A stretch of DNA of 64,000 nt from Heliocybe sulcata (Eukaryota; Basidiomycota; Agaricomycetes; Gloeophyllales; Gloeophyllaceae): contig ML213508.1 in NCBI GenBank assembly GCA_004369045.1, positions 1,226,976 through 1,290,975 of the forward strand, given 5' to 3'. Of the stretch, positions 5,368-54,767 are shown piece by piece. A program made the translations under genes and the position numbers. The notes below the pieces were generated by a model. The model was not told the origin of the DNA, did no database searches, and worked only from the letters and a program-made list of their open reading frames with translations. How positions within the stretch are numbered: position 1 is the stretch's first letter; every line of letters starts with the position of its first letter.

Positions 5368-5397
5368 CATCAGGGAAACCCTCCGGAGCGAATTATA
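5368..5397 (+). repeat. Left terminal inverted repeat of the Plavaka element
   Basis: Thirty bases beginning CATCAGGGAAACCCTCC match the reverse complement of 13409-13438 with three mismatches. The match stops abruptly on the outer side, which sets the element's left boundary. Confidence 0.85.
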
Positions 5398-5421
5398 CAA
5401 AATTCTACATGATACAGCCAT

Positions 5422-5462
5422 TTATGTCTAATTAGTTCCCTTAGTCAGTTATGTCTAATTAT
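5422..5462 (+). repeat. Left subterminal repeats
   Basis: Two copies of TTATGTCTAATTA lie at 5422-5434 and 5449-5461. Related motifs (TGTATAATTAT) sit near the other end at 13349-13359 and 13385-13396. Short subterminal repeats of this kind are binding sites for the transposase in CACTA elements; that role here is inferred. Confidence 0.6.
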
Positions 5463-5669
5463 ATTGATCACGTTGGCCTCCTTGTCAGTCATGCGTGATT
5501 AGGTATCATTGAACATGATTATCTCATAATAATCTCATTAGCTTCCGTCTATTCACTCGTGCATGGATAGTAGGATGCGTGCATATATATTTTGCAATCA
5601 ATAAGCATACAAAATAGTAGGAGATGCGAGCGCCGAACTAGTAGCAGATCCTAAACGTACTCAACGAAC

Positions 5670-8116
5670 CTACAATGCACTAAGATCAATCAGACTAAGT
5701 GCATTCGGTTGACCGTGAACATCGCCGGCGCCATGAGCGGCAGAAGTCCTGTCGCATGAATATTAGCGCTGCACCCCATAGGTCATATAATCGACGCACC
5801 GGCATGCCTTCCACAAGCACTGCATGGTCTCGTGATAGAGGGCCGGTTTGTTCGTACGTGCTGACTCCAGCATCCCGACATGAAGGCTATACGTCTGGGA
5901 CCAGTTACTGCCAGTGAAGTCCGCGGGTACATGCTGTCCGGTAGACCACTCTGCAATTGCAGCATGTACCTGTTGTCCAATTAGCCACTAATCGCGAAGC
6001 ATCCGGGGACAGGACTCACCGCCGTGCAGACCAGGGCAACCATCGGTGCCGGGACTTCGGGCTCATTGCCACCACGCGCAAGGTCCGTAAAGATGTCCTT
6101 GTGCTGCTTGACGAAGTTCCTCCGACCAGTGAAGTATGCGGCCTGCATAACTCCGATAATAGCATCAGCTCTCCAAGGTTGGTTCCATTTGATTTGACCA
6201 CCAGGCTATGCCGATTCAGCGAGGATATCACATCAACAAAGAAGGCAGTCACTTACACGGTGATCGCCAGCGAAGATATATCGCTGTGCCTTCAAGAGAT
6301 CCTGGACATGGGCTTCCTGACCGTAGGTAAGGCCGTAGTGCCCGACGCAGAAGTTTGTCGCTATGACCTTGATGTCTCGGCGGATCACGCTGATACGGGC
6401 GTCGGCCTGAAAAGCATCGCCACCATTAACAGGAACCTGAACCCAGGAATCATGACTTACAAGCTCGGCGAGGGCGTTACGGAAGCGCTTCTCCGTGTCA
6501 TCCTGCAGTCGTCTCAGGATTGGCACATACTGGGCCCCTAGGGTCACGGCCGCTGTAACAAAACAGCCTAGAGCGACTTCCCTCCTCTTACCGAACTCGG
6601 GATACGCATTCTCAGTGATTATTTTGACCTCTATCTCACCGATGGCCAGGCGAGCTACATCTTGTATCTCCGTGGTCTGGGCTGTGAGGTTGAGCTTGTT
6701 CCGCTTGTTGTAGACGAGATGGGTGACGCCCTCCGGTTCGCTCTCCTCATCTTCGTCCTCCTCATCGGAAGGGGTAGGAGTGTTGTCGATTTCATGGCCA
6801 GCACGTGGGAGCACTGCTGGCAGCCTTTTGCTGGCAGGGACAGGTGCGGTGTTCTTGCGAAGTTGTGGTGCGACATCCATGCTGTCCCAAATAGGGACCT
6901 AACCAGTAGATAAAAAGATGTTAGCCAGGTCGAACGGGCGGCGAAAGACATACTTCTTCCTCATGGGCAATCTCGCGCTTGCTCTTGCGCACATGGTGGA
7001 CGACCTTCCGAGTGTGCTTGATGACTCCATTAACACTCTCGCCAGGCTCCCGTTTTGTCCTCCGATCGGTATTGATGACATGATTGTCGTCATCGAACAG
7101 ATTGATGGCATTTGGAGCACCACCCTTCAGCAAGGCGGAGCTAGGGCGAGAGGGGACAGTGGCTGGTCGCTCATTGTCGGAAGGATTGTCGCTGGGAATG
7201 CTGACCAGTGCCGAGTCGTATGAAGAGGAACTGCCACTGCGCAACTTCTTACGACGCATCTTAGGCGGTCCGTGCAGTAGTGGGTCATAGTCGTCATCTG
7301 CAGCGCTCTGGAATGTCGGGACCTACACAACATTCTAATCTGGTCTTTTCCAGACAGTACTGGTATCACGCACCTCACTGTCCAGCACCTGTTCGAGCCG
7401 AGTGGGTGCTAGGCCCTCAAGACCTTCGTCATCCTCAGACTCCACCGCATCATTAGGTGCTTCTTCATCAGTACTTGTGTCGCCTTCGCAACTCCCGTCT
7501 CCATCAACGAAAGACTCCTCCGAGTCAGATTGAATATCCAGAGCTCGATATTCTAGGTACTTGGTTTATATAGACACGTTCGAGGGTGAAGGAGCGGGCA
7601 CTTACGACGGTTTTGAACGGAATTGGCACCTCTGGCGTTGTCGGGGTTAGCTGAGCTGTCAGTATCTGGTAGGATAAGGAGCGAGTTCTATAAGAGGAGG
7701 ACGAATAGCGGCTTACCTTTCTTGGATTTTTTGTGTGTATTTGCCTCTGTGGGCGTCCCTATTGACGCCGCACGCTTGCGCAGCTGGGAAGTTCCCTGCT
7801 CACTGCTTTTCTTCATCCACACTGCGATGAAAATGTTCAGCTGTCCTCCGATACTAACAGTCGGGGATTCTTACCGCGGTTAGTTGCAGCCTTCACCTTA
7901 GCATCACGGGGTGCTGGCAACGATAGTGTGAGTCGACGATCAGAACTATTAAGGCTTGTACTGACCAGCTACTTTTGTCAGCTCCTTTGCATCCTTGGCT
8001 GCCTGGGCTTTGCGGTTACGCTCTCTAGTCCGCGCTGACTTCTGTCCACGGGTGAGAGTGCTCTCATCCACTGCTGCACTCACTTCCTGGAGCCTCCTGA
8101 CGGTCTTGCCAGGCAT
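5670..8116 (-). CDS. DUF6532 domain protein carried by the Plavaka element
   Basis: On the minus strand an ATG at 8116 opens MPGKTVRRLQEVSAAVDEST, and about ten exons lead to a TAG at 5670-5672. The N-terminus is strongly basic (RTRERNRKAQAAK), the middle is acidic and Ser-rich (exon near 7380-7550, then EEDEDEESEPE near 6750), and the C-terminal 250 residues match the basidiomycete DUF6532 domain. Landmarks there are IKVIATNFCVGHYGL, AAYFTGRRNFVKQHKD, FTDLARGGNEPEVPAPMVAL and SLHVGMLESARTNKPALYHE. The biochemical role of DUF6532 is unknown. The gene lies wholly between the element's terminal repeats and is transcribed away from the transposase, so it is most simply read as a second element gene, perhaps a DNA-binding or accessory protein. 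Exon ends were chosen by frame and splice consensus, and the N-terminal exons are less certain. Confidence 0.75.
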
Positions 8117-8324
8117 TGTCAGGCCACGGGAAGAAGGGTCTGTGACTAGTGGGCGAGCGTTGTCGAGGTTGAGGTTGTATGAGAGAGGGTTGAAAATTGC
8201 AGGATCCGAAAGAGGAAGTGCGATGGGCCGGCCATTGCTCAGCGCTCAGCCGGTGTAATGCCGAACTAGCGTAGCGTACGTGGCTTCAAGTCTATCGCAA
8301 AGTTGATCATCATCCTAGGCAACA

Positions 8325-11300
8325 ATGGTCACTTGTAGAGGCTGCCTCCGCAGCTTTTCCTTGGCAGGCTACACTCAGCATCTACAAAGAACAAGCTTAC
8401 CTGCTTGTAAAGCAATATACGACGCTCTTGAGAATTATGTTCCGCAGTCAGGTTCAAGTCATCAACCTGCTGACGGTTTGAATAGCGACCTACCTGGTGC
8501 AGATACTATCCCTCAGGCTCGGTTTCAGGGCGACTTCTTCAGGGAGAACTATGCACGAGGAGAGGATTTCGAAATGGAGGACGACGGGCAGGGGAAGGAC
8601 TGGCTACCAGCACTGGAGGCCGAAGGAGATTCAGACGAATCAGATGATGAGTATCAGAATGATCTTGAGAGTCGATGGGAGCCACCAGTATCGTACCCAC
8701 CATCGCGAATCCCCGGTGACCACAGCGGCGAGATCATGGATGCGCAATCAGACTCAGACAAGGAGGAGGACCCAGACTCATCCCGTACTCGGACTGCCAG
8801 AGCCAGGGCTGAGGACGCCGCTCGCCGACAGCCTGCTGTAACCAAGTTCCCAGGTGGTGCTGCTGGCAAACCAGTGAATACGTCAGAGCTCAGAGCTAGC
8901 ATGTATGAGGAGTATTCCCACCAAATGAATGCATCCGCCGACAATCCTTGGGCGCCTTTTGCATCCAAGCTAGACTGGGAAGTTGCACGTTGGGCGAAAC
9001 TCCGTGGTCCTGGTTCCACAGCGCTCACAGAGCTGCTCCAAATAGACGGGGTGAGGCATTATAGGTCCATTCGAATAATATGTTCGCTGACTTTGAACTT
9101 GGGGAAGCGGGCCACTGCGTTGCATGGCATTTTACGAGTCCTGAGGTCTGAGCAATACTTTAACTACACAATGTATTTTCTGCTTAAATAATATAACCTA
9201 CTTTGCCTATAGTGCAGAGTATGAAGGATGGTTTTGGAAACTTAATGAATCAAACCATCAACTAGGCACACAATTGATAAGTTCTGAGCACTGAGCACCA
9301 CACCAGCACACCTGAATTGCCGACGCGGCGACTAGGACCCGAATAAACCACTTCAACTGCAACTTGTAGTGGGTTCCCACGGTAAGAAGGGTCTCCGGCA
9401 AAGACGACGGCGTGAAAAATCACAAGATGTACGGTAATTCACAATAATATTGGTAAACACACCTTGAACTGATAAGATCTTATATTGAGAAGTAGAGGTG
9501 GACTTGCGCAGAACTGCACAACGAGGGACAAACGGAAGCGGAACGGACACTACAAAACGCGGTTTGTAGGGATTTTGTAGTCACGAATACAAACGGAATT
9601 AAATCGGAGCCTCAATTTTGTAGTGAACACCACACAAAATAACTCTCACGACTTCTCGGCATTTTATTCCCACGACGCTTGTGTTCGGCAAACCGCTCAC
9701 TTTTGAACGTAAGGACTCCTCCTTCGTACCTCAGGACTCGTAAAAAGGTCCACGAGTTGCTCAACTTGTCATTCAAGGATGCTGATACATTGAACAAGGT
9801 AATTGATGCATTGCCAGGGCGTCCAAAGTTCAAGCGTGAGGAACTCGTAGTCGCAGGCGAAGTATTTGACTTACATTACCGGGATGTGATCGAGTGCATA
9901 CATGCTCTCTACGGTGACCCAGAGTTTGCAGTAGACCTCGTCTTTGCACCAGAGCGTCACTATGCAGATGAAGACCGCACGATTCGGGTATACAGCAACA
10001 TGTACACTGGGAAATGGTGGTGGGCAACTCAGGTTCGTGTCCATTACGTCTGCGATTGCCTTGGCAGAGGTGCTTACCCAAAATGCTAACAGAAGGAACT
10101 AGAGCGCCAGCGCCCCGGAGCGACCATTATACCTGTAATATTATCATCGGATAAGACACAAGTGACGCTTTTCGGCAACAAATCTGCTTATCCCATCTAC
10201 ATGACGATTGGCAACCTCCCGAAGGAGATCCGCCGAAAGCCCTCTCGTGGAGGTCATATCTTGCTCGGATATCTTCCCACCACCCGGCTGGACCATATAA
10301 CAAACAAGGCAGCTAGGCGGCACACTCTCGCAAATTTATTTCATTCCTGTGTGCAACGTATCTTGTCTCCCTTGAGAGCAGCCGGGCAGAATGGTCTTCT
10401 TATGCCGAGCGGTGATGGAGTCCATCGACGAACTCATCCTCTCTTTGCTATGTTCGTCGGGGACTATCCGGAGCAGGTACTTGTAGCTGGCATCAAGACT
10501 GGTGATTGCCTGCGGTGTGATATCTCCCACCACAACCTGGGCGAGTTTGATCCTTCAGCTGATTACCCATTCCGGGAGCTTGATCCCGTCCTCGACGCTC
10601 TTGGCACCATCTCGGAAGGGCCCACTGCCTTTGTGAAGGCTTGCAAAGAAATCCGTATCAAGCCGATTCAACACCCATTTTGGGAAGATCTGCCGTACGC
10701 AAATGTCTTCCAATCGATCACACCAGACATTCTCCATCGGCTCTATCAAGGTGTTATGAAGCATGTAATATCCTGGGTTATGAGTGCTTGCGGCGCTCAC
10801 GAGATCGACGCCCGTTGCAGGCGATTCCCGCCGAATCATCAAATATGCATATTCATGAAGGGTATTAGCACACTATCGAAGATAACAGGACACGAGCACG
10901 CGCAGATGTGCCAGCTGCTGCTCGGCATGGTCATGGATATCAAGCTCCCGAATCACCTCCCGACTTCCCGTCTCGTCCGCGCCGTCCGTGCCATCCTAGA
11001 CTTCTGTTATCTTGCTCAGTATCCTGTCCACACCGATAATACTCTGAGCCTGCTGAAGGATGCTCTGGGACGATTCCATGACGAGAAAGATATATTCATT
11101 GCACTCGGCATTCGGTCAGACTTCAACTTCCCGAAGCTCCATGCACTGTTGCATTATTTACGGTCTATCCAGCTGTTCGGCACTACCGATAATTACAATA
11201 CTGAGTACACCGAGTGGCTACATATTGACCTGGCGAAGGATGCATACCGTGCTACGAATCACAAGGATGAATATCCCCAGATGACACGATGGCTGGAGAG

Positions 11301-12188
11301 ACGCGAGAAGGTCATCCGACATGACAGGTATATTTCTTGGCGACTGGGTGGGTGCCCGCCAATACGCCCACTCCCGCACCTGGTACATAAAGCAACGGAG
11401 CCCGGTAATCTCATACGTATGGCAAAGCATCCATCACTGAAGGCTGTCCCCTTGTCCAGACTGCCATCTTCGTATGGGGTGATGCACTTCCAGGCTGCGC
11501 TTGCCCGCTTTGTGGTCCAGTATCATAACCCTCATTTTACGCAAGCGCAGATCGAACTGGATGCCGAAAGCACATACATACATTTTGCGACCATCCCAGT
11601 GTTCCACAAGATTAAATTCTGCATCAAGGACCCTTTCGGACGTGAGGAATCCTTCGACCGCTCTGACACAGTGCATGTGAGACCCGTGCGCCAGGACAGC
11701 CGAAGCAACAATGTGCCTGCTAGGTTCGATACTGTCCTTGTGAACCTTGCTGGAGGTGAAACAGAGCACCGTCTGCAAGGTGATTCCGAGATTGAACATT
11801 CTACTATTCCGTGACTTACTGATACATTGTTGTGTATACAGGCTACCGCGTGGCTCAGGTCCGACTCGTCTTCTCCCTGCCCTCTGCTGCAGCAGCATCG
11901 CTATTCCGGAGACCACCTCCAGAGCATCTAGCATACGTTGAATGGTTCTCACCATTCACTCGTCCTGACCAAAACTCCGGGATGTATAAGGTATCCCGCT
12001 CTATCCGTGGTGGTGTACGGCTGGCCAGTGTGATCCCTGCATCGCAGATCATGCGCAGCGTACACCTCCTCCCGAAATTCGGACCTGTAGTGCCACGTGA
12101 GTGGTCAAGTAGCACCGTGCTCGACTCAGCGCCAGCATTCTTTGTGAATCCTTACCTAGATCGTCACTCGTTTACCACTTTCCTGTAG
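8325..12188 (+). CDS. Plavaka transposase
   Basis: This is the DDE-type transposase of the surrounding element. Exons 8325-9050, 9748-10032, 10093-11779 and 11842-12188 join in frame to 1014 residues. The N-terminus has a C2H2-like zinc knuckle (CRGCLRSFSLAGYTQH, residues 4-19), followed by an acidic linker. The Plavaka core follows: LPGRPKFKREELVVAGE, RDVIECIHALYGDPEF, TGKWWWATQ, SSDKTQVTLFGNKSAYP and IRRKPSRGGHILLGYLPTTR, then GDGVHRR and FVGDYPEQVLVAG. Aspartates in SSDKTQ and GDGVH are candidates for the catalytic acids. A C-terminal GYRVAQVRLVFSLP box ends the protein. The first intron is 697 bases instead of about 80 because another element sits inside it. No stop or frameshift interrupts the spliced frame, so it may be active. 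Confidence 0.9.
9130..9745. mobile_element. Non-autonomous inverted-repeat element nested in transposase intron 1
   Basis: An 18-bp perfect inverted repeat, TTTTACGAGTCCTGAGGT at 9130-9147 and its complement at 9728-9745, bounds about 616 bases with no supported coding region. The segment lies inside a 697-base intron; without it the intron would be about 80 bases, normal for this genome. The interior has several copies of a TTTGTAG-like word (about 9550-9625). I see no clear target-site duplication, so the superfamily is not assigned. Confidence 0.75.
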
Positions 12189-12393
12189 CTTGTAGAGCCA
12201 CCCTAATGTGCCTGAGCACGCGATAAACATGTGCGCAGCATGTTCCAAACGTGCTTCAGTCTGAGCTCGTAAATCTGACAGGTCGATCTAATCAAAGGGT
12301 AATACTGTGTAAGCGTGCCCTTTTAAATACACAAACGGTGCCCTCACAAGTTTCCCTACTCCATCATCCCGCTACCCACTACTCCTCCGAGTC

Positions 12394-13045
12394 ATGCCAC
12401 TAAGGTATACCGTCGAGCATAGTGACAATTTGGAGCGCTGCGACATCCAGATGAGCGCTGATGGCAGTGGACGGAAGTTGACTCTCACCATAGTACCCAA
12501 AGGGAAGCTAACATCAGATCCAATTGTGAGTGGTGCAAGGCGTCGGTCTCCACAAAAAAATTTGCGACTGACCGGCAAGTCTACAGAAAGTGGAAATAGG
12601 CCTCCAGGCTCCCGAAGACTCGGTGACTCCAAAGAATGAAGGGGGTGACGCATGTTCGGGCCGCAGGACACCTGGACCAGAAACGCAGCAAATCTTGGAT
12701 TGGGTGAAAAGCCTGCCGGAAGGCTCTGCAACAGAGCCTGAGGTTTGGACCGATGACCAAGTTATCAACTTCTTGGTGGAATTACGGGCGACAAACAAGT
12801 TCCCAGCACCTTTTGTAAGTTCAAGGGGTCATTGCATAGTATTACTCCGTCGCAAAAGGACTAAAACTTACATCCAGTGTACGCCGAAGAAGACTCGGAG
12901 TCGACTTGCGACACGAGACAGGAGTCCAGATCGGGGACCAGCTGCGCAGGGACCATCAGTCAGTGCGAAGAGAACCGCAAGTGATCTTCAAGTTGGTGGG
13001 CTTGAAGCTCAGAGGGTCGTCCGCAGTAAGAGCCAGTCGAACTAG
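12394..13045 (+). CDS. Small basic protein at the right end of the Plavaka element
   Basis: Three exons (12394-12525, 12587-12814, 12878-13045) with standard GT-AG junctions give 175 residues in frame, starting MPLRYTVEHSDNLERC. The first third looks like a beta-rich segment (RKLTLTIVPKGKL), the middle is acidic (ILDWVKSLPEGSATEPEVW) and the end is very basic (TPKKTRSRLATRDRSPDR), which could serve as a nuclear signal. I do not recognise the family. It lies between the transposase stop and the right terminal repeat on the transposase strand, so it is probably an element accessory gene. Clean splicing argues that it is expressed. Confidence 0.55.
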
Positions 13046-13348
13046 TACTAGGAGTACATCAGACCAAGGCGCGCAGCTCACCCCAGTCTTGAAACTCCGA
13101 TGATCATTGTATCTTCGGTGATAGAAAGTGGCCTCGGATGCCACCCTAAGGTCTGAAAATGATGTAGATACATACATGCATTGAACTGGAATATATCTGC
13201 CAAAAAAAAGTGAGTGCCGGGTGCGCCCCTGCTCAAGCATATCTCAATCTTGCTTTCCGAAGTTGACAGTGGCTGTGCAGTCCTAATACGGTATGTTGCG
13301 CCACAACCGACTCGCTCGTGCTAACTCGGACCAAGCATACATTATTCT

Positions 13349-13396
13349 GTATAATTATACTGACTTATGAGCATAAGTCTCGTCATGTATAATTAT
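13349..13396 (-). repeat. Right subterminal repeats
   Basis: Two copies of TGTATAATTAT (13349-13359 and about 13386-13396) lie inside the right terminal repeat and resemble the left-end copies, with the core (G)TNTAATTA in common. They are probable transposase recognition sites. Confidence 0.55.
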
Positions 13397-13408
13397 GTGT
13401 GAGTGAGA

Positions 13409-13438
13409 TATAATTTGCTCAGGAGGGTTTTCCTGATG
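13409..13438 (-). repeat. Right terminal inverted repeat of the Plavaka element
   Basis: Read on the minus strand it begins CATCAGGAAAACCCTCC and pairs with the left repeat at 5368-5397 with three differences. Outside it the two flanks no longer match. Confidence 0.85.
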
Positions 13439-48200: not shown

Positions 48201-51200
48201 ATGGCCATCCTGCCTATGCACGCCCCGCACATGTTCTCCAACCACTACACCCACCATGCCGACACCTCCCACAGACCCTTCATCAAGCTCGAGTCCACAG
48301 AGTCCCCCGACTTGCCCCCTTCGCCCACTCCCCACTTCAACTTCTCCGGTCATACCTACAACTCGTCCCCGCACCTCTTCCGCTTCGGCGCCCCGCACCA
48401 CTCCCCCTCCCATCTCAACTTCATGTCGAACCACTGGGGCCCCTCGTCGTCCTACAGCATGCACCAGTACGACCTCCCCGCCATACACGACTCGCGCGCG
48501 GGACCGCCCTACGCGGACGACTACGAGGACGCCGACGAGCTCTCCGAGCTCCCTGAGTCCGCCGCGCAGCAGTCTGCCCCGAAAAAGGCCGACGACAAGC
48601 AGATCCGCAGGCGGAGCAGCAAAGGTGCGGTGTTTCCCTACCGCGAGTCTGGCGCGTAACGGATGTGTATGCTGTCTATCAGCCTTTGGGTGTGAGGTCC
48701 GATCTGCATGAGAGACGGAGAGGTAGAATACGCATCTGCTCGCTCCAGACCCGTTCCCCAAAGCACCATAGTAACACTGACCGCCTCGTCTCGGGTAAAC
48801 CCTTTTCCCTACGCAGCCTGCGACCAGTGCCGCAAGTCAAAATGCAAGTGCGAGCGCTCGTCCGAGAACGAGCCGTGCAAGAACTGCGTGCTCCTCAATA
48901 CCTGTGAGTGGTGTCTTATCTAAGTGGGACTGGATACTTGACGACGGACAGCCTGCACGTTCCTGGGCCCGTCGAGGAAGCGCGGCCCCCCAAAGGGGTA
49001 CATCGACGCCATCGAGGCGCGGCTGCACCAGACCGAGGCGCTCGTGGGCATCCTCCTCGGCTCCACCGACTCGCGCGCGCGCACGCTGCTCGACGACCTC
49101 GCTTCCGTCGTGCGTCGCTTCCCCGCGCTTCTCTTTCTCTTTCGTTGCTCTGACTGGGTGAGGTAGGACACGCTGGCGAAGGAGATTATCAATCGCGTGG
49201 ATAACTCGCCGTATGGGACAAAGGGCCGCCGGCGCGGCGCGGATGGCGCGGCGAATGGGGGGCGCGCGCGGTCTGCGAGGCCCGGGGGCGCGCAGAGTCT
49301 GCCTGCGAATGGAGAGCAGGCGGCTGCGCAGGAGGCGCTGCGGTCTACTCAGTACGCTCTCTCCCTTCCCTTCCTAACCTCGCGGACTTATACATATCGC
49401 CCGCAGCCCGTCGAACGAGTGGCAGGACCAAGTAACAGCAAAGCTGCACGCGCTGGGGGGGCCCGGCTACGCGTCGTCGTACGACGAGCCGACGCTGCCT
49501 CTGCACCCGGCGCAGCGGAGGCGGTCGCGCTCGCCGCGGTCGGGCTCGCCGGAGGGGTATGGGGAGATGAGCAGCCCGAGTCAGTTGGACGAGAGCGAGG
49601 ACGAGGACGAGCTGGCGGATGCGGTGGGGCAGCTGAGTCTGAATGAGCATGAGGAGGTGAGGTACCATTCGAAGGTGAGCGGGTTGCATTTGTTGGGGGT
49701 GAAGGAGCGGAGCGATGGGAGGAGCGAGGGGGGGATTTGGTGAGTGGTTAACGTTTAGTTGTGCGGTGGGGTGGGGGGGAGCTGATTGGGGTGGTGGGGT
49801 GTAGGAAGTTCCCGAGCTCGAGGGTGTGGCCGCCGTTACCTGAGAACCGACTCCCGGCGAAGAAGGAGGAGGAGTATGCGGCGCGGTTGCCGGATATGGG
49901 GGTGCAGGAGCACCTTGTGGACTTGTACTTTACGTACGTGCACACTGCGTTCCCGATCGTGCACAAGAAGACGTTCCTCGACGACTTTAGTCACGCGTGA
50001 GTACTCCCTCCGCTGCAATTAACATGGCTGATTCGGGGTTATAGGCGCGCGAGCATGGACTCGCCGACACACAGCCCGGACACGGCGTCGCCTGTGCGTT
50101 CTTCGCCGTTTGGGCGGCGGCGGCAGACGGTGCCCGCCTTGCTGCTATTCGCCATGTTCTCCATCGCCGCGCGGTACTCTCCCAACGCAGAGGCGCCGCC
50201 GCCGCCGTTCGGCGCGATGTGGCCCGCGGGGGACGGGTACCTGGAGGAGGCGAAGCTGATTTTAGACTGCACGTACGCGTCGTCGAAGCCGACGACGGTG
50301 CAGGCCTTGCTGCTGATGGGCTACCGGGAGATTGGGATCGGGGCGATGGCACAGGCGTGGTTGTACATTGGGATGGCGGTGCGGATGGCGCAGGATTTGG
50401 GGATGCATAAGAGTGCGGATAAGTGGCAGAGGAGTGTGGGGACGCTTTTTGGGGGGTGGGAGTTGCAGGAGAGGAAGAGGATTTGGTATGCGTGTGTGGT
50501 GATGGATAAGTATGTGTCGACGTATATTGGTGAGTTTTGTGGGAGTTCTTTTGGGTGGGGAGGGGGGAGCTGATTGGGGGTGGTGGGTAGGCCGGCCGCT
50601 TGCGATTTTTGGGGGCGATTTTGATAATGGGTTCCCGAGCGAGGAGGAGGCGGAGGAGTTTGAGGAGTGGGCGCCGCATGCGTCTGAGCCGGTGGCGGTC
50701 GAGCGGGGGGAGCAGACGCCTGTGAACAGCGCTATCGCTGTGCCGGGGCGTGTGATTTCGTGCTTTAACGCGTCGGCGAGGTTATGTGAGTGGATTTGTT
50801 GCTGTGCAGGCGTTGGCTGATTGGGGGCGCAGCGATTGTGTTGAGCAGTATTGTGCAGATGATTTATCCGATTCGTCCGAGGCAGGGACGGTATGCGGAG
50901 GCGCAGCGGCTGGAGAAGGAGCTGGATAGGTGGTATATTGAGCTGCCGGAGCATTTGCGGTTTGACCCGGCGGCGTCAAAGGCGCCTGCGCCGTTGCCGC
51001 ATATACTTACGTTGCATATGCAGTACTGGTGTACGGTGCTGCTTTTGCACCGGCCGTTGTGCGTGCGGTTCTTTCTTTTGGTGGATGCGGTGGCTTATTT
51101 TTTCTTTGCAGTATTCGGCATTTGACAGAGACCACGCGGAACAAGTGGGTGTTTCGTTGTAGCCATTGGAATGAGTTTTGATTGGCTGTGTAGGTCTCCT

Positions 51201-52224
51201 GCTTCGGATACTCAGGAGGAGCAAGACGTCCGTGCGATTTCGCAGAAAAATTACGACATGTGTGTGCGCGCCGCCAATTATATAACGTCTATAGGTATGT
51301 ATTTCTTTGTCAGTCCGATGCAGGTCCCGCTGACCGTGCCCTTTAGTATCCGTCTACTTGCAAAACTTTTGTATCAGACGGTGCTCCGTTTTCCTGTGCT
51401 ATTATGTTTTCACGGCGAGTATCATGCACGTGACGACCCGTAAGTGTTGCGCGAATTGTATCGTCCAGGAGACTCAATTTGTCGATAGTGACGGCCTATC
51501 CTAATGATCCGCAAGCACGAATGGGCCTCCAAAAGCTGGTCGATGCGCTGGAGAAGATGGAGATGGTCTGGCCGAGTGCTGGCCGCGCTCGCGAGCTCAT
51601 TCATGGTTCTCGCGCATGGTCCAGTGACGCTGCGCACCCTCGTCCCGAGTACTCGTCGTACCTGCGCCACAAGCGCCCGCACGACGACGGGGAGTCTGTT
51701 GAGCACGGCCACCTGCCTGTGCTCGAGTCGTCGTTGCGGCGCTCGAGCTACAGCCCGTCCAGCGGCCACGGCTACCCGCTGAGCGGCGTCGACATGCCGC
51801 CGAGCGATATCCCCAGCTACTTCCCGTGGGCGGGCGACAGCGCGCTGTCGTTCTCCGGGAGCCTGTCCACCTCGGTGCTGCCCCAGCAGTACAGCACTGG
51901 CCTCGTGGACGAGCGCACGCCCGCTTCGATGAGCCGGGGGCAACACCCAGAGGGGGCTGTCAACGGTCGCTACCCCCAGTTCTGGAACGACTACTCCACG
52001 TTGGGGCAGCTCGGCTCGACGAGCTATGGGGTGCCTGTGTTGCCGGAGATAGCTCAACCGCAGCAACACCATCAGCAGCATCACACGCCGTCGAGCAGCC
52101 ATGGCCAGCACTCGCCCATGTACTTGCACGACCATTACCACATGTTTAGTGAGTGCCTTCTGCCTCGTGTTCTCCAAGCGAGTGCTTATTGTTTTCAGAT
52201 AACCTTCCGCCATCGAACCCCTAA
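48201..52224 (+). CDS. Zn2Cys6 fungal transcription factor with Fungal_trans domain
   Basis: A nuclear DNA-binding regulator. The start is taken at 48201 (MAILPMHAPHMFSNHYTHH); an ATG at 48231 is equally possible. After an acidic, His/Ser/Pro-rich leader, an intron of about 195 bases precedes the zinc cluster ACDQCRKSKCKCERSSE...PCKNC, with the Cys6 spacing intact. The linker GPSRKRGPPKGYIDAIEARL and a short dimerisation helix follow. The fungal regulatory middle region runs from LVDLYFTYVHTAFPIVHKKT through LLLFAMFSIAARYSPNAEA, MGYREIGIGAMAQAWLYIGM and RIWYACVVMDKYVS to QYWCTVLLLHRPL. The C-terminus is Ser/Gln/His-rich with a HQQHH run, and a last short exon ends NNLPPSNP. The layout resembles sugar and cell-wall regulators such as XlnR-type factors, but the target cannot be inferred. 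About eleven introns; GC is unusually high in the DNA-binding exons. Confidence 0.88.
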
Positions 52225-52752
52225 TGTGTATTTGTTCCCAGATGTATCATAATTTAGGACGGTTCGGCACCCTCCTGCGTATCATGTTTGTATCATGTAG
52301 TCATCAGTGTTGTGGCATTGTACGGCTATGAGTCATCAGTAATCCTAATCTTTCTCTCATCCTCCTCGGCTAGCGTTTGTATTCCTTCTGCATCCGTGTT
52401 CGCCTAACCAGAGGTTAGGGTTCCGTTTCGGCCTGGCTATTGGACAGCTCGCATATCCAATTGCTTTGTACGACAGGGACGAGGAATGATATCGCCCCAC
52501 TAGATCGCCCCACGCCCTACTTGTGCAGATCCGTCGGGTGGCCTCGGCTGCGAGTCTGACTCCCGCCACGATCACCCATCCACGCCGATAATCTATATTA
52601 GGTGAGGTATACACATCTACGACAAATATTGTAACAGACAGACAAAATGGAAAGAACAAAAAACTCGGCCACCAAAAGTTCATGAGGGAATTTGTGCTGC
52701 GATTGTTGCTTGTCGTCTACGTGGCAAAGTGGAGGGTTCCAGCATGAGACGC
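52225..52752. other. Convergent intergenic stretch
   Basis: The 3' flanks of the Zn2Cys6 gene and of the UDP-glucose dehydrogenase gene meet here. No coding region is seen. Confidence 0.4.
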
Positions 52753-54767
52753 TCAGAGTCGCTCGCCTCGGCCGATGACGGCGACCTAACAAGCAAACAC
52801 GTTTCATGTCAGTGTTCCTTGATAACGCAAGCGAGGGACGCGGAGGGACTGGAAGAGGAACCAACCTTGAAACCAATGTCCCTGAGCTTCTCGACGTCGA
52901 TGAGCATGCGGCCATCGAAGACGAAGGCAGGCTTGTTCATGCCTGCGTAGACCGTCTCCCAGTCGATTTCCCTAAACTCCTTCCACTCGGTCGCGATCAC
53001 GACTGCCTCGGCATTCTTGCATGCCTCCAAGGCAGACCCGCAGATCTGCACCTGCTTCTGGACTATACGCGCAAAGATGAGGATTGAGAGTATGCATGAG
53101 TCAAGAAGGGTCAGGACGTACTGGTAGCGGCGGGGGTGACGGGCATGGCCTCGGCGAGGTCAAGCCAGATCTGCTCATGCGGGACCTTGGGATCGTAGAG
53201 GTTGACGAGGGCGCGCTCGGCGACAAAGTCCTTCACCAGCGTGATCGCGGCGGATTCACGGGTATCACCGGTGTCGGCCTTGAACGCGAAACCGAGGACA
53301 GCAATGCGCTATAATAGCATTCCAAGTCAACAACTAAGCCCCCGAAACCAAGTCCGTTCGCACTGACCTTGCCCGTGATAGTGTTGAACAGAGTATCCAC
53401 GACCCTCTTCGAGAACCTCCTCTTCTGGTACTCGTTCATCTCGACCACCTGGCGCCAGTACGCCGCGACCTCGGGCAAATGCAGGCTCTCACTGAGGTAC
53501 ACCAAGTTGAGGATGTCCTTCTGGAAGCAGGAGCCACCGAAGCCGACGGAGGCCTTCAGGAACTTGGGGCCGACGCGCGAGTCCCGGCCAACAGCGTGCG
53601 CGACCTCGTCGATGTTGGCACCTGTGGCCTCGCAAATCGCGGACAGCGCATTTATAGAGGAGATGCGCTGCGCAAGCATCGCGTTCGCAGCGAGCTTGGA
53701 GAGTTCGGAGGACCACAGGCCGACGGTGAGGATGCGTTCCCGGCTGCGATAAAATCAACTCCAGTACGATAGGTCGTAATCTGAATACACTCACGGAACC
53801 CAATGCGCATACACCTCGGCGAGGCTCACGGCAGCATCCTTGCCCTCCTGGGTTTGCAGTGAGCCGATGAGGACGCGGTCGGGGCTGAAGAGGTCGGCGA
53901 TGGCAGTGCCCTCGGCAAGAAACTCGGGGTTGGAGAGGATCTGGAACTTGCAGTTGGGCTTGCTGTTCGCCTCGAGGATGGTGCGCATCGACTCGGCGGT
54001 GCGGCACGGCACGGTCGACTTTTCGACGACAATCTTGGAGGAATCGGCGACGGCGGCGATGCGACGCGTGGCGAGCTCGACGTAGCTGTCGGGAAGGCGT
54101 TAGCATTCGATGTCAAGGTATCGCAATGGCGAGTATAGCCAGCATATATTGACAGGACGTCTCGTCCAATTTTTAATTGATATATGCCAGTGCTTGAGAG
54201 CTGCCTGATAAGCCCAGGTTTTCGTGGGTTCCACATCCGAAGTCGAATGCGATCATCCATCGGAGAGAATGATGTAGAAAGCTCCTGGCGCCTGACGACA
54301 TCCCGAATGTAAAATTCAGCACTCACTTCAGATCGGCCGCAAAGCCAGCTCCGACGCCGTTCTTCTTCGTGGGCGTGTTCACACTGACGAAGATGAGATC
54401 CGCCTCCCGGATGCCCTTGTCCACGTCGGTCGAGAAGAACAGGTTCCTGCCGCGAGCTTGCCGCACGACATCCTCTAAGCCGGGCTCGTAGATGGGCAGG
54501 TCAAAGTCCTTGCTGTTCCACGCGTCGATGCGCGCCTGGTTCAAATCGACGATGGTGACAGTGATGTCGGGGCACCTTAAAGCAATCACGGCACACGTCG
54601 GTCCACCTTACACGCTGTCAAACAGTATTATAAAGGCAAGTGTTAACTGCGCTTACCAACGTATCCCGCCCCGACTAGATGCGCGTCGCGTCAGTATCCT
54701 CAGCAACCGCGATATTATCGATAAAACACGTACTACAGCAGATCTTCTTAACTTGAACAGGAGCCAT
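52753..54767 (-). CDS. UGD1: UDP-glucose 6-dehydrogenase
   Basis: It oxidises UDP-glucose to UDP-glucuronate with two NAD+, giving the precursor of glucuronic-acid and xylose-bearing glycans. The ATG at 54767 opens [11 protein letters not shown]. Two short introns yield [20 protein letters not shown], nearly identical to the animal enzyme's NAD-binding start. Further landmarks are [94 protein letters not shown] and the catalytic cysteine in [17 protein letters not shown]. The C-terminal domain has [27 protein letters not shown] and [18 protein letters not shown], and ends GRGERL at 52753. One intron (about 54090-54325) is longer than usual. Fungal homologues are about the same length. Confidence 0.95.

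What the first reader, a model, noticed from the sequence alone, without database searches (positions are those of the whole stretch)
5368..13438. A whole Plavaka transposon carrying a DUF6532 gene inside its terminal repeats
Matching 30-bp inverted ends enclose an uninterrupted 1014-residue Plavaka transposase, a divergent DUF6532 gene and a small basic protein. DUF6532 is abundant in Agaricomycetes with no known role. Finding it between the repeats suggests that it is, or began as, a transposon gene and could explain its expansion.
Basis: partly seen in the sequence, partly recalled or inferred. Interest (0 to 1): 0.82.

Follow-up and report, generated by a model that had tools for sequence, protein, structure and literature searches.

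The report
DUF6532 is a fungal transposon gene
In this fungal genome a protein family of unknown role (DUF6532) turns out to be the second gene of a group of jumping genes (PlavakaB), which makes its likely job, helping the transposase recognise the element's ends, testable.

Summary
Window 5368-13438 is a complete 8,071-bp PlavakaB-type element: inverted ends matching at 27 of 30 positions, a 2-bp target duplication, a Plavaka transposase splicing to exactly 1,014 residues, and a divergent DUF6532 gene. In the window's own genome (31.6 Mb) I found 8 complete elements with CATCAGG ends, a 2-bp duplication and a Plavaka match. All 8 also carry DUF6532 at the opposite end, both genes pointing outwards; at least two of these transposase genes are disrupted. 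Of 14 DUF6532 loci, 12 lie just inside such an end. DUF6532 and transposase trees agree on the 8 elements. Two of three close DUF6532 pairs show purifying selection. Subterminal arrays follow the clades in two of three lineages. No DUF6532 lies within 20 kb of the KDZ, Helitron or divergent Plavaka loci found. So DUF6532 is an integral PlavakaB gene here. Its most likely role, inferred only, is a TNPA-like protein that binds subterminal repeats. The third 'small basic protein' is private to this copy. Other fungi could not be tested.

The parts
5368..5397 (+). left terminal inverted repeat, CATCAGG..., preceded by TT
   Evidence: 27/30 pairs with the right end
5398..5690 (.). AT-rich subterminal region with TAATTA/CTAAT words
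   Evidence: both 320-bp ends together: CTAAT 6 against 8 in the 7,431-bp interior; TAATTA 4 against 1
5670..8116 (-). DUF6532 gene, modelled as 11 exons, 644 aa: charged, low-complexity N part (about 347 aa) and C-terminal DUF6532 domain
   Evidence: gene model; window exon coordinates; PF20149; composition
8325..12190 (+). Plavaka transposase gene, 4 exons (8325-9050, 9748-10032, 10093-11779, 11842-12190), 1,014 aa
   Evidence: PF18759; splice check
9097..9743 (.). 647-bp dispersed repeat inserted in intron 1 of the transposase gene
   Evidence: 99.5% identical copies at C28 and C10; 44 matches in the genome, itself included
12313..13045 (+).
13340..13408 (.). right subterminal region with TATAATTATAC words
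13409..13438 (-). right terminal inverted repeat, followed by TT

Best explanation
The window holds a two-gene cut-and-paste DNA transposon of the PlavakaB type (CACTA-like CMCT clade). Gene 1 is the Plavaka transposase. Gene 2, at the opposite end and divergently transcribed, is a DUF6532 protein that, judging from matching trees, has been inherited with the transposase since before the three PlavakaB lineages of this genome split. Shown here: the gene's place inside the ends, its fixed position and orientation, co-inheritance with the transposase, and selective constraint. Inferred: gene 2 works like TNPA of plant CACTA elements. It would be a fast-evolving nuclear protein that binds lineage-specific subterminal repeats (CTAAT-type or CTACA-type) and brings the ends to the transposase, which cuts at CATCAGG and makes 2-bp target duplications. 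On this reading DUF6532 genes are numerous because the transposon copies them.
For: Eight complete elements (C6 x2, C8, C30, C5 x2, C41, C27; 6.3 to 20.0 kb) have CATCAGG ends and an exact 2-bp, never 3-bp, duplication. All 8 hold both genes at opposite ends, pointing outwards. Four more DUF6532 loci without a readable partner gene lie inside CATCAGG ends: C46, C32, C12 and a nested remnant. As a yardstick, the word CATCAGGRAA occurs once in the 55.8 kb of the window outside the element. Trees: same topology over the 8 elements, Mantel r 0.85, p 1.2e-4; with C37 added r 0.67, p 9.5e-4. dN/dS of DUF6532 is 0.15 and 0.17 in two close pairs, against 0.12 for a transposase pair. Subterminal arrays: CTAAT in the W/C8/C30 lineage and its small derivatives, CTACA in the C5a/C41a/C6b lineage; the top 5-mer count is reached by 0 of 300 shuffles in C8, C5a, C41a, C6b and the four small elements. 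Controls: 0 of 11 KDZ, 0 of 10 Helitron and 0 of 9 divergent Plavaka loci have a DUF6532 within 20 kb (loci grouped by me from searches whose counts are lower bounds). The CACTA precedent of a conserved transposase plus a dissimilar TNPA binding divergent subterminal repeats is in PMC2613891 (passages).
Against: No biochemical or structural evidence that DUF6532 binds DNA: no PDB relative by profile, and the single-sequence model of half the domain is unusable, pLDDT 37. Subterminal arrays are weak or unclear in C27 (68 of 300 shuffles reach its top 5-mer) and C30 (75 of 300), and middling in C5b (9 of 300). In W the top 5-mer is ATAAT (2 of 300), and in C6b it is CCTAC, with CTACA second. In C37 the readable DUF6532 fragment groups with another clade than its Plavaka neighbour and cannot be assigned because of a gap. 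The C27/C32 pair gives dN/dS 0.63 at 4% synonymous divergence. The near-copy pair C5a/C41a shows more difference in the transposase rows (0.20) than in DUF6532 (0.05), against the rule that DUF6532 is faster, although the C41a row is two joined ORF pieces. At least two of the eight transposase genes (C5a, C41a) look disrupted and a third (C6b) is interrupted by a nested element. One genome only.
Confidence: 0.6

Rival explanations
1. DUF6532 is an integral PlavakaB gene but acts against host silencing (as the TET-like gene of the larger elements may, or as VANC does in plant VANDAL elements, the last recalled) rather than in end recognition.
For: In one PlavakaB lineage a weak Tet_JBP match lies directly upstream of DUF6532 (C5b, C27, C32) or in the same element stretch (C37). 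Lineage-specific subterminal arrays would also be expected of an anti-silencing binder.
Against: DUF6532 has no match to a known enzyme family above chance. It occurs in all three lineages, whereas the TET-like gene is in one. A co-factor needed in every lineage fits end recognition better.
Confidence: 0.18
2. DUF6532 is a host gene that was captured as passenger cargo and is kept for the host or drifts.
For: Large PlavakaB elements here do carry passengers: FKS1-type glucan synthase sequence in C27 and a LIM-domain ORF in C5b.
Against: Same place and orientation in 8 of 8 elements, trees matching the transposase, purifying selection in two of three close pairs, and 12 of 14 DUF6532 loci inside PlavakaB ends. 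The other two (C37, C38) could not be placed, so a resident host copy is not fully excluded.
Confidence: 0.05
3. The association is chance: DUF6532 and Plavaka simply both pile up in repeat-rich regions.
For: Both are repeats.
Against: 0 of 11 KDZ and 0 of 10 Helitron loci have a DUF6532 within 20 kb. The two genes share TIRs with 2-bp duplications and a fixed divergent layout.
Confidence: 0.01

Closest known systems
PlavakaB DNA transposons (Kojima 2025, PMC12730594; outline, passages and section 3.2 read)
   Same: Ends CATCA..TGATG, 2- or 3-bp target duplications, Plavaka transposase; some families carry TET-like genes, as the C5b/C27 lineage here does.
   Different: A word search of the main text shows no DUF family named (the one hit of 'duf' is an author name in the references) and the passages read mention no general second gene of Plavaka. 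Its supplement could not be read. Here a DUF6532 gene is constant.
Plant CACTA/En-Spm elements with TNPA and TNPD (PMC2613891, passages read)
   Same: Conserved transposase plus a dissimilar second protein, short conserved TIRs, divergent subterminal repeats; Kojima puts Plavaka and EnSpm in one CMCT clade.
   Different: Maize TNPA comes from alternative splicing of the element's transcript and acts on CACTA ends. DUF6532 is a separate divergent gene; no sequence comparison with TNPA was made, and DNA binding is untested.
Nuwa-type Harbinger elements with a Myb/SANT second protein (named in PMC12730594)
   Same: Two-gene layout, transposase plus accessory protein.
   Different: DUF6532 has no Myb/SANT match; different transposase and target duplication.

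Membership tests
PlavakaB transposons | PF18759 transposase | tested here: met
   E 9e-84 and 3e-25 on two ORFs; 1,014-aa frame
PlavakaB transposons | termini 5'-CATCA..TGATG-3' | tested here: met
PlavakaB transposons | 2 or 3 bp target-site duplication | tested here: met
   2 bp in the window copy and in 11 of 12 TIR pairs; 3 bp in 0 of 12
PlavakaB transposons | transposase falls in the published PlavakaB clade | not testable with these tools
   Kojima's sequences (supplement) were not available
DUF6532 (PF20149) | match above the curated cut-off of 24 bits | tested here: met
   32.8 bits for one ORF, 135 bits for the hand-trimmed spliced domain; 7 of 7 rows given to that call match, out of 14 loci
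CACTA TNPA-like accessory protein (works like) | element has lineage-specific subterminal repeats | tested here: met
   CTAAT or CTACA arrays in two of three lineages; third lineage unclear
CACTA TNPA-like accessory protein (works like) | protein binds those repeats and is needed for transposition | not testable with these tools
   bench assay needed
CACTA TNPA family (membership) | sequence homology to TNPA/TNP1 | not tested
   no TNPA sequence was compared; Pfam gave no such family

The most novel reading that the evidence does not exclude
The whole DUF6532 family is a transposon family: a new class of TNPA-like subterminal-repeat-binding proteins that co-evolve with their PlavakaB ends. DUF6532 genes annotated across mushroom genomes are then transposon genes, or proteins domesticated from them.
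Probability: 0.45. Interest if true: 0.75.

Novelty: new variant of a known kind. Interest (0 to 1): 0.62.

Why it matters
If it holds beyond this genome, a Pfam family of unknown role gets a genomic context, an origin and a testable function. PlavakaB changes from a one-gene to a two-gene transposon, in line with other CACTA-clade elements. Gene catalogues that count DUF6532 as lineage-specific host genes may be counting transposons. The clade-matched pairs of DUF6532 protein and subterminal array found here are ready-made reagents for a binding test.

Tried and rejected
Rejected: C37 as a ninth pair. Its Plavaka element (left end 28388) has the 5' part of a C5b-type DUF6532 at about 48.05-48.36 kb, but then a run of N (50174-54520), and the DUF6532 fragment beyond it groups with another clade. 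C41:72 kb runs into the contig end. C46: the side where a transposase would lie is N, so no absence is claimed. C38:59.6-60.9 kb has no CATCAGG end within the 58.0-62.5 kb read and gives only a poor gene model. A CATCAGGAA word at C37:55775 was not accepted as an end.

Led nowhere: exact 8-mers as subterminal repeats (5- and 6-mers worked better). PDB profile search (one match, E 0.61). AlphaFold on half the domain without an alignment (pLDDT 37; dropped, no fold search made). A viral-contig scan with a transposase ORF (nothing). PlavakaA-type TGT..ACA ends in the same regions (only weak pairs, or perfect ones that belong to nested inverted repeats). Literature: DUF6532 and PF20149 are in one held paper, Plavaka in 11. 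I opened 5 of those 11, by passages or sections, and what I saw there does not describe DUF6532 as a gene of Plavaka. IPR045341, an accession typed from recall, gave no paper. Iyer et al. 2014 is not held, so whether that work noticed the gene is unknown.

Counting choices: grouping matches into loci (28 DUF6532 matches into 14 loci; 39 Plavaka into 19; 21 KDZ into 11; 11 Helitron into 10) was mine, and the positions used are typed in the script. There C41:72 kb counts as 'within 20 kb' only through its neighbour's DUF6532, so 8 of 10 strong Plavaka loci have their own DUF6532 and 2 of 10 are unreadable. In one search codon columns in stretches of low identity (under 35% in a 21-column window) were dropped before the dN/dS count, which favours conserved columns. 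In one search columns with over 35% gaps were dropped.
Full report
Observation. The 30-bp ends at 5368-5397 and 13409-13438 pair at 27 positions and are the longest inverted pair in the region. They are flanked by TT on both sides. Between them lie a DUF6532 gene on the minus strand and a Plavaka transposase on the plus strand. Its first intron is 697 nt because a 647-bp dispersed repeat (9097-9743; four further near-full-length copies at 99-100%, 44 matches in all with itself; edges) sits four bases before the 3' splice site. The DUF6532 gene is modelled as 11 exons and 644 residues. Models come from a simple codon-and-splice script that allowed introns of 40-110 nt, so exon edges are approximate.

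Genome test. The window lies in a 31.6-Mb, 51-contig genome that could be searched; its species was not determined. Plavaka matches (39) fall into 19 loci, 10 of them strong (E below 1e-60). DUF6532 matches (28, E up to 1) fall into 14 loci (my grouping; the tool calls such counts lower bounds). Looking for CATCAGG ends around them gave eight complete elements: C6:1232343-1240413 (the window), C6:1290722-1298555, C8:1288297-1294638, C30:78377-84980, C5:339403-348325, C5:585985-601735, C41:54891-62710 and C27:416-20424. None contains N. All eight show a 2-bp duplication (TT, TC, TC, TG, CA, CA, AA, CT in that order) and none a 3-bp one. All eight have a DUF6532 match near one end and a Plavaka match near the other, both pointing outwards. 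The ends of the window, C8 and C30 elements match over 23-27 of 30 bases, those of the others over 15-20, with the first 11-13 bases conserved. In ten modelled copies the DUF6532 stop lies 69 to 388 bp from its end. Not all copies look intact: the C5a and C41a transposase models are broken off (569 and 394 aa) and C6b's is interrupted by a nested element. Four small TIR pairs exist (C1, C17, C22 and the one nested in the C6 element); three show the 2-bp duplication, the nested one does not. The nested one keeps a DUF6532 remnant, 45% identical to the C8 copy; the other three match neither gene.

The remaining DUF6532 loci. C46 and C12 share the DUF-side end of the C30 element and C32 shares that of C27. 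With the eight complete elements and the nested remnant, 12 of 14 loci lie just inside a CATCAGG end. For scale, CATCAGGRAA occurs once in the 55.8 kb of the window outside the element. C38 is a poor relative of the C5a copy without an end, and C37 lies beside a gap.

Controls. No DUF6532 lies within 20 kb of any of 11 KDZ loci, 10 Helitron loci or 9 divergent Plavaka loci. Of the 10 strong Plavaka loci, 8 have their own DUF6532 and 2 cannot be read (contig end, gap). The divergent Plavaka loci are about 19-60% identical to the transposases here in short pieces; whether they are PlavakaA was not established.

Co-inheritance. Trees of nine rows from 275 DUF6532 and 940 Plavaka columns agree on all eight complete elements: W and C30, then C8; C5b with C27; C5a and C41a with C6b (support 86-100 for DUF6532, 98-100 for Plavaka). 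The distance matrices correlate (8 elements: r 0.85, p 1.2e-4; with C37: r 0.67, p 9.5e-4). The only conflict is C37. DUF6532 diverges more in most pairs (W-C30 0.64 against 0.39; C5b-C27 0.46 against 0.38; C5a-C6b 0.69 against 0.51). The near-copies C5a/C41a go the other way (0.05 against 0.20), where the C41a transposase row is made of two ORF pieces.

Selection. By a Nei-Gojobori count on columns left after dropping low-identity stretches, dN/dS of DUF6532 is 0.15 (C5a/C41a), 0.17 (C30/C46) and 0.63 (C27/C32, only 4% synonymous divergence). Transposase pairs give 0.12 (C30/C41b) and 0.08 (C5b/C37). The other pairs tried are saturated at synonymous sites.

Ends and a working model. The W/C8/C30 lineage and its small derivatives have CTAAT words in the outer 320 bp (C8: 11 against 4 in the interior; W 6 against 8; C30 5 against 4; small elements 11-16 against 0-2). 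The C5a/C41a/C6b lineage has CTACA instead (13, 14, 10), with none or one CTAAT. The top 5-mer count is reached by 0 of 300 dinucleotide shuffles in C8, C5a, C41a, C6b (there the top word is CCTAC) and all four small elements. W (2 of 300, ATAAT), C5b (9), C27 (68) and C30 (75) are weaker. The motifs were picked from the same sequences, and C5a and C41a are near copies (about 93% in DNA). This is the CACTA layout: conserved tips for the transposase, divergent subterminal repeats for a divergent binding protein (PMC2613891, passages). DUF6532 would be that protein. Its make-up, a charged N part of about 160-350 residues and a C-terminal domain, is compatible but not diagnostic. DNA binding is not shown.

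Wider setting. One lineage is large (15.8 and 20.0 kb). It carries a weak Tet_JBP match directly upstream of DUF6532 in C5b, C27 and C32; the four genome matches at E below 0.01 (C37, C27, C5, C32) all lie in this lineage. They are below the curated cut-off and would fit the PE-type TET-like proteins that Kojima reports in transposons, PlavakaB included. Passengers include FKS1-type glucan synthase sequence in C27 and a LIM-domain ORF in C5b.

Literature. DUF6532 or PF20149 occurs in one held paper, which lists it with Plavaka, KDZ and four other domains as additional in two Ganoderma species (passage). Kojima 2025 defines PlavakaB; DUF6532 is not in its main text by word search. Its supplement and Iyer 2014 could not be read. 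Within these searches I did not find the link in print.

Verdict. That DUF6532 is an integral PlavakaB gene in this genome: about 0.95. That it is a TNPA-like end-binding accessory: about 0.6. That this holds for the family at large: about 0.45, untested here.

Noticed in passing
window 9097-9743: A 647-bp dispersed repeat (four further near-full-length copies at 99-100% identity, 44 matches in all) sits in intron 1 of the transposase gene just before the 3' splice site; an 18-bp inverted repeat (9130-9147/9728-9745) lies near its ends.
   Followed up: partly
L027:7224-9594 (C27:7224-9594, inside the 20-kb element): 1,3-beta-glucan synthase (FKS1-type) sequence, Pfam E 2e-166 and 1e-46 on two ORFs, lies between PlavakaB ends, suggesting capture of a cell-wall gene or part of it.
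   Followed up: no
L025:7242-7697 (C5), C27:3276-3812, C37:39138-39548, C32:59256-59462: TET/JBP-like oxygenase ORF, directly upstream of DUF6532 in C5, C27 and C32; the four best Tet_JBP matches in this genome are all in this one PlavakaB lineage, all below the curated cut-off.
   Followed up: partly
L025:3787-4341 (C5:594787-595341): LIM-domain ORF (E 4e-12) inside a 15.8-kb PlavakaB element.
   Followed up: no
C6:1291144-1292895 (L011): A 1.75-kb non-autonomous PlavakaB element with a DUF6532 remnant is nested in the C-terminal part of another element's transposase gene and shows no 2-bp duplication.
   Followed up: partly
C5:341.2-342.1 kb and 345.8-346.7 kb (L009, L010): Near-perfect inverted copies of a further repeat inside the C5a element; similar arms at C41:51.7-59.0 kb. 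Probably another transposon inserted more than once.
   Followed up: no
window 12200-13330: About 1.1 kb between transposase stop and right end is private to this copy; its distal part (query 890-1111) has 70% matches at C9 and C1.
   Followed up: partly
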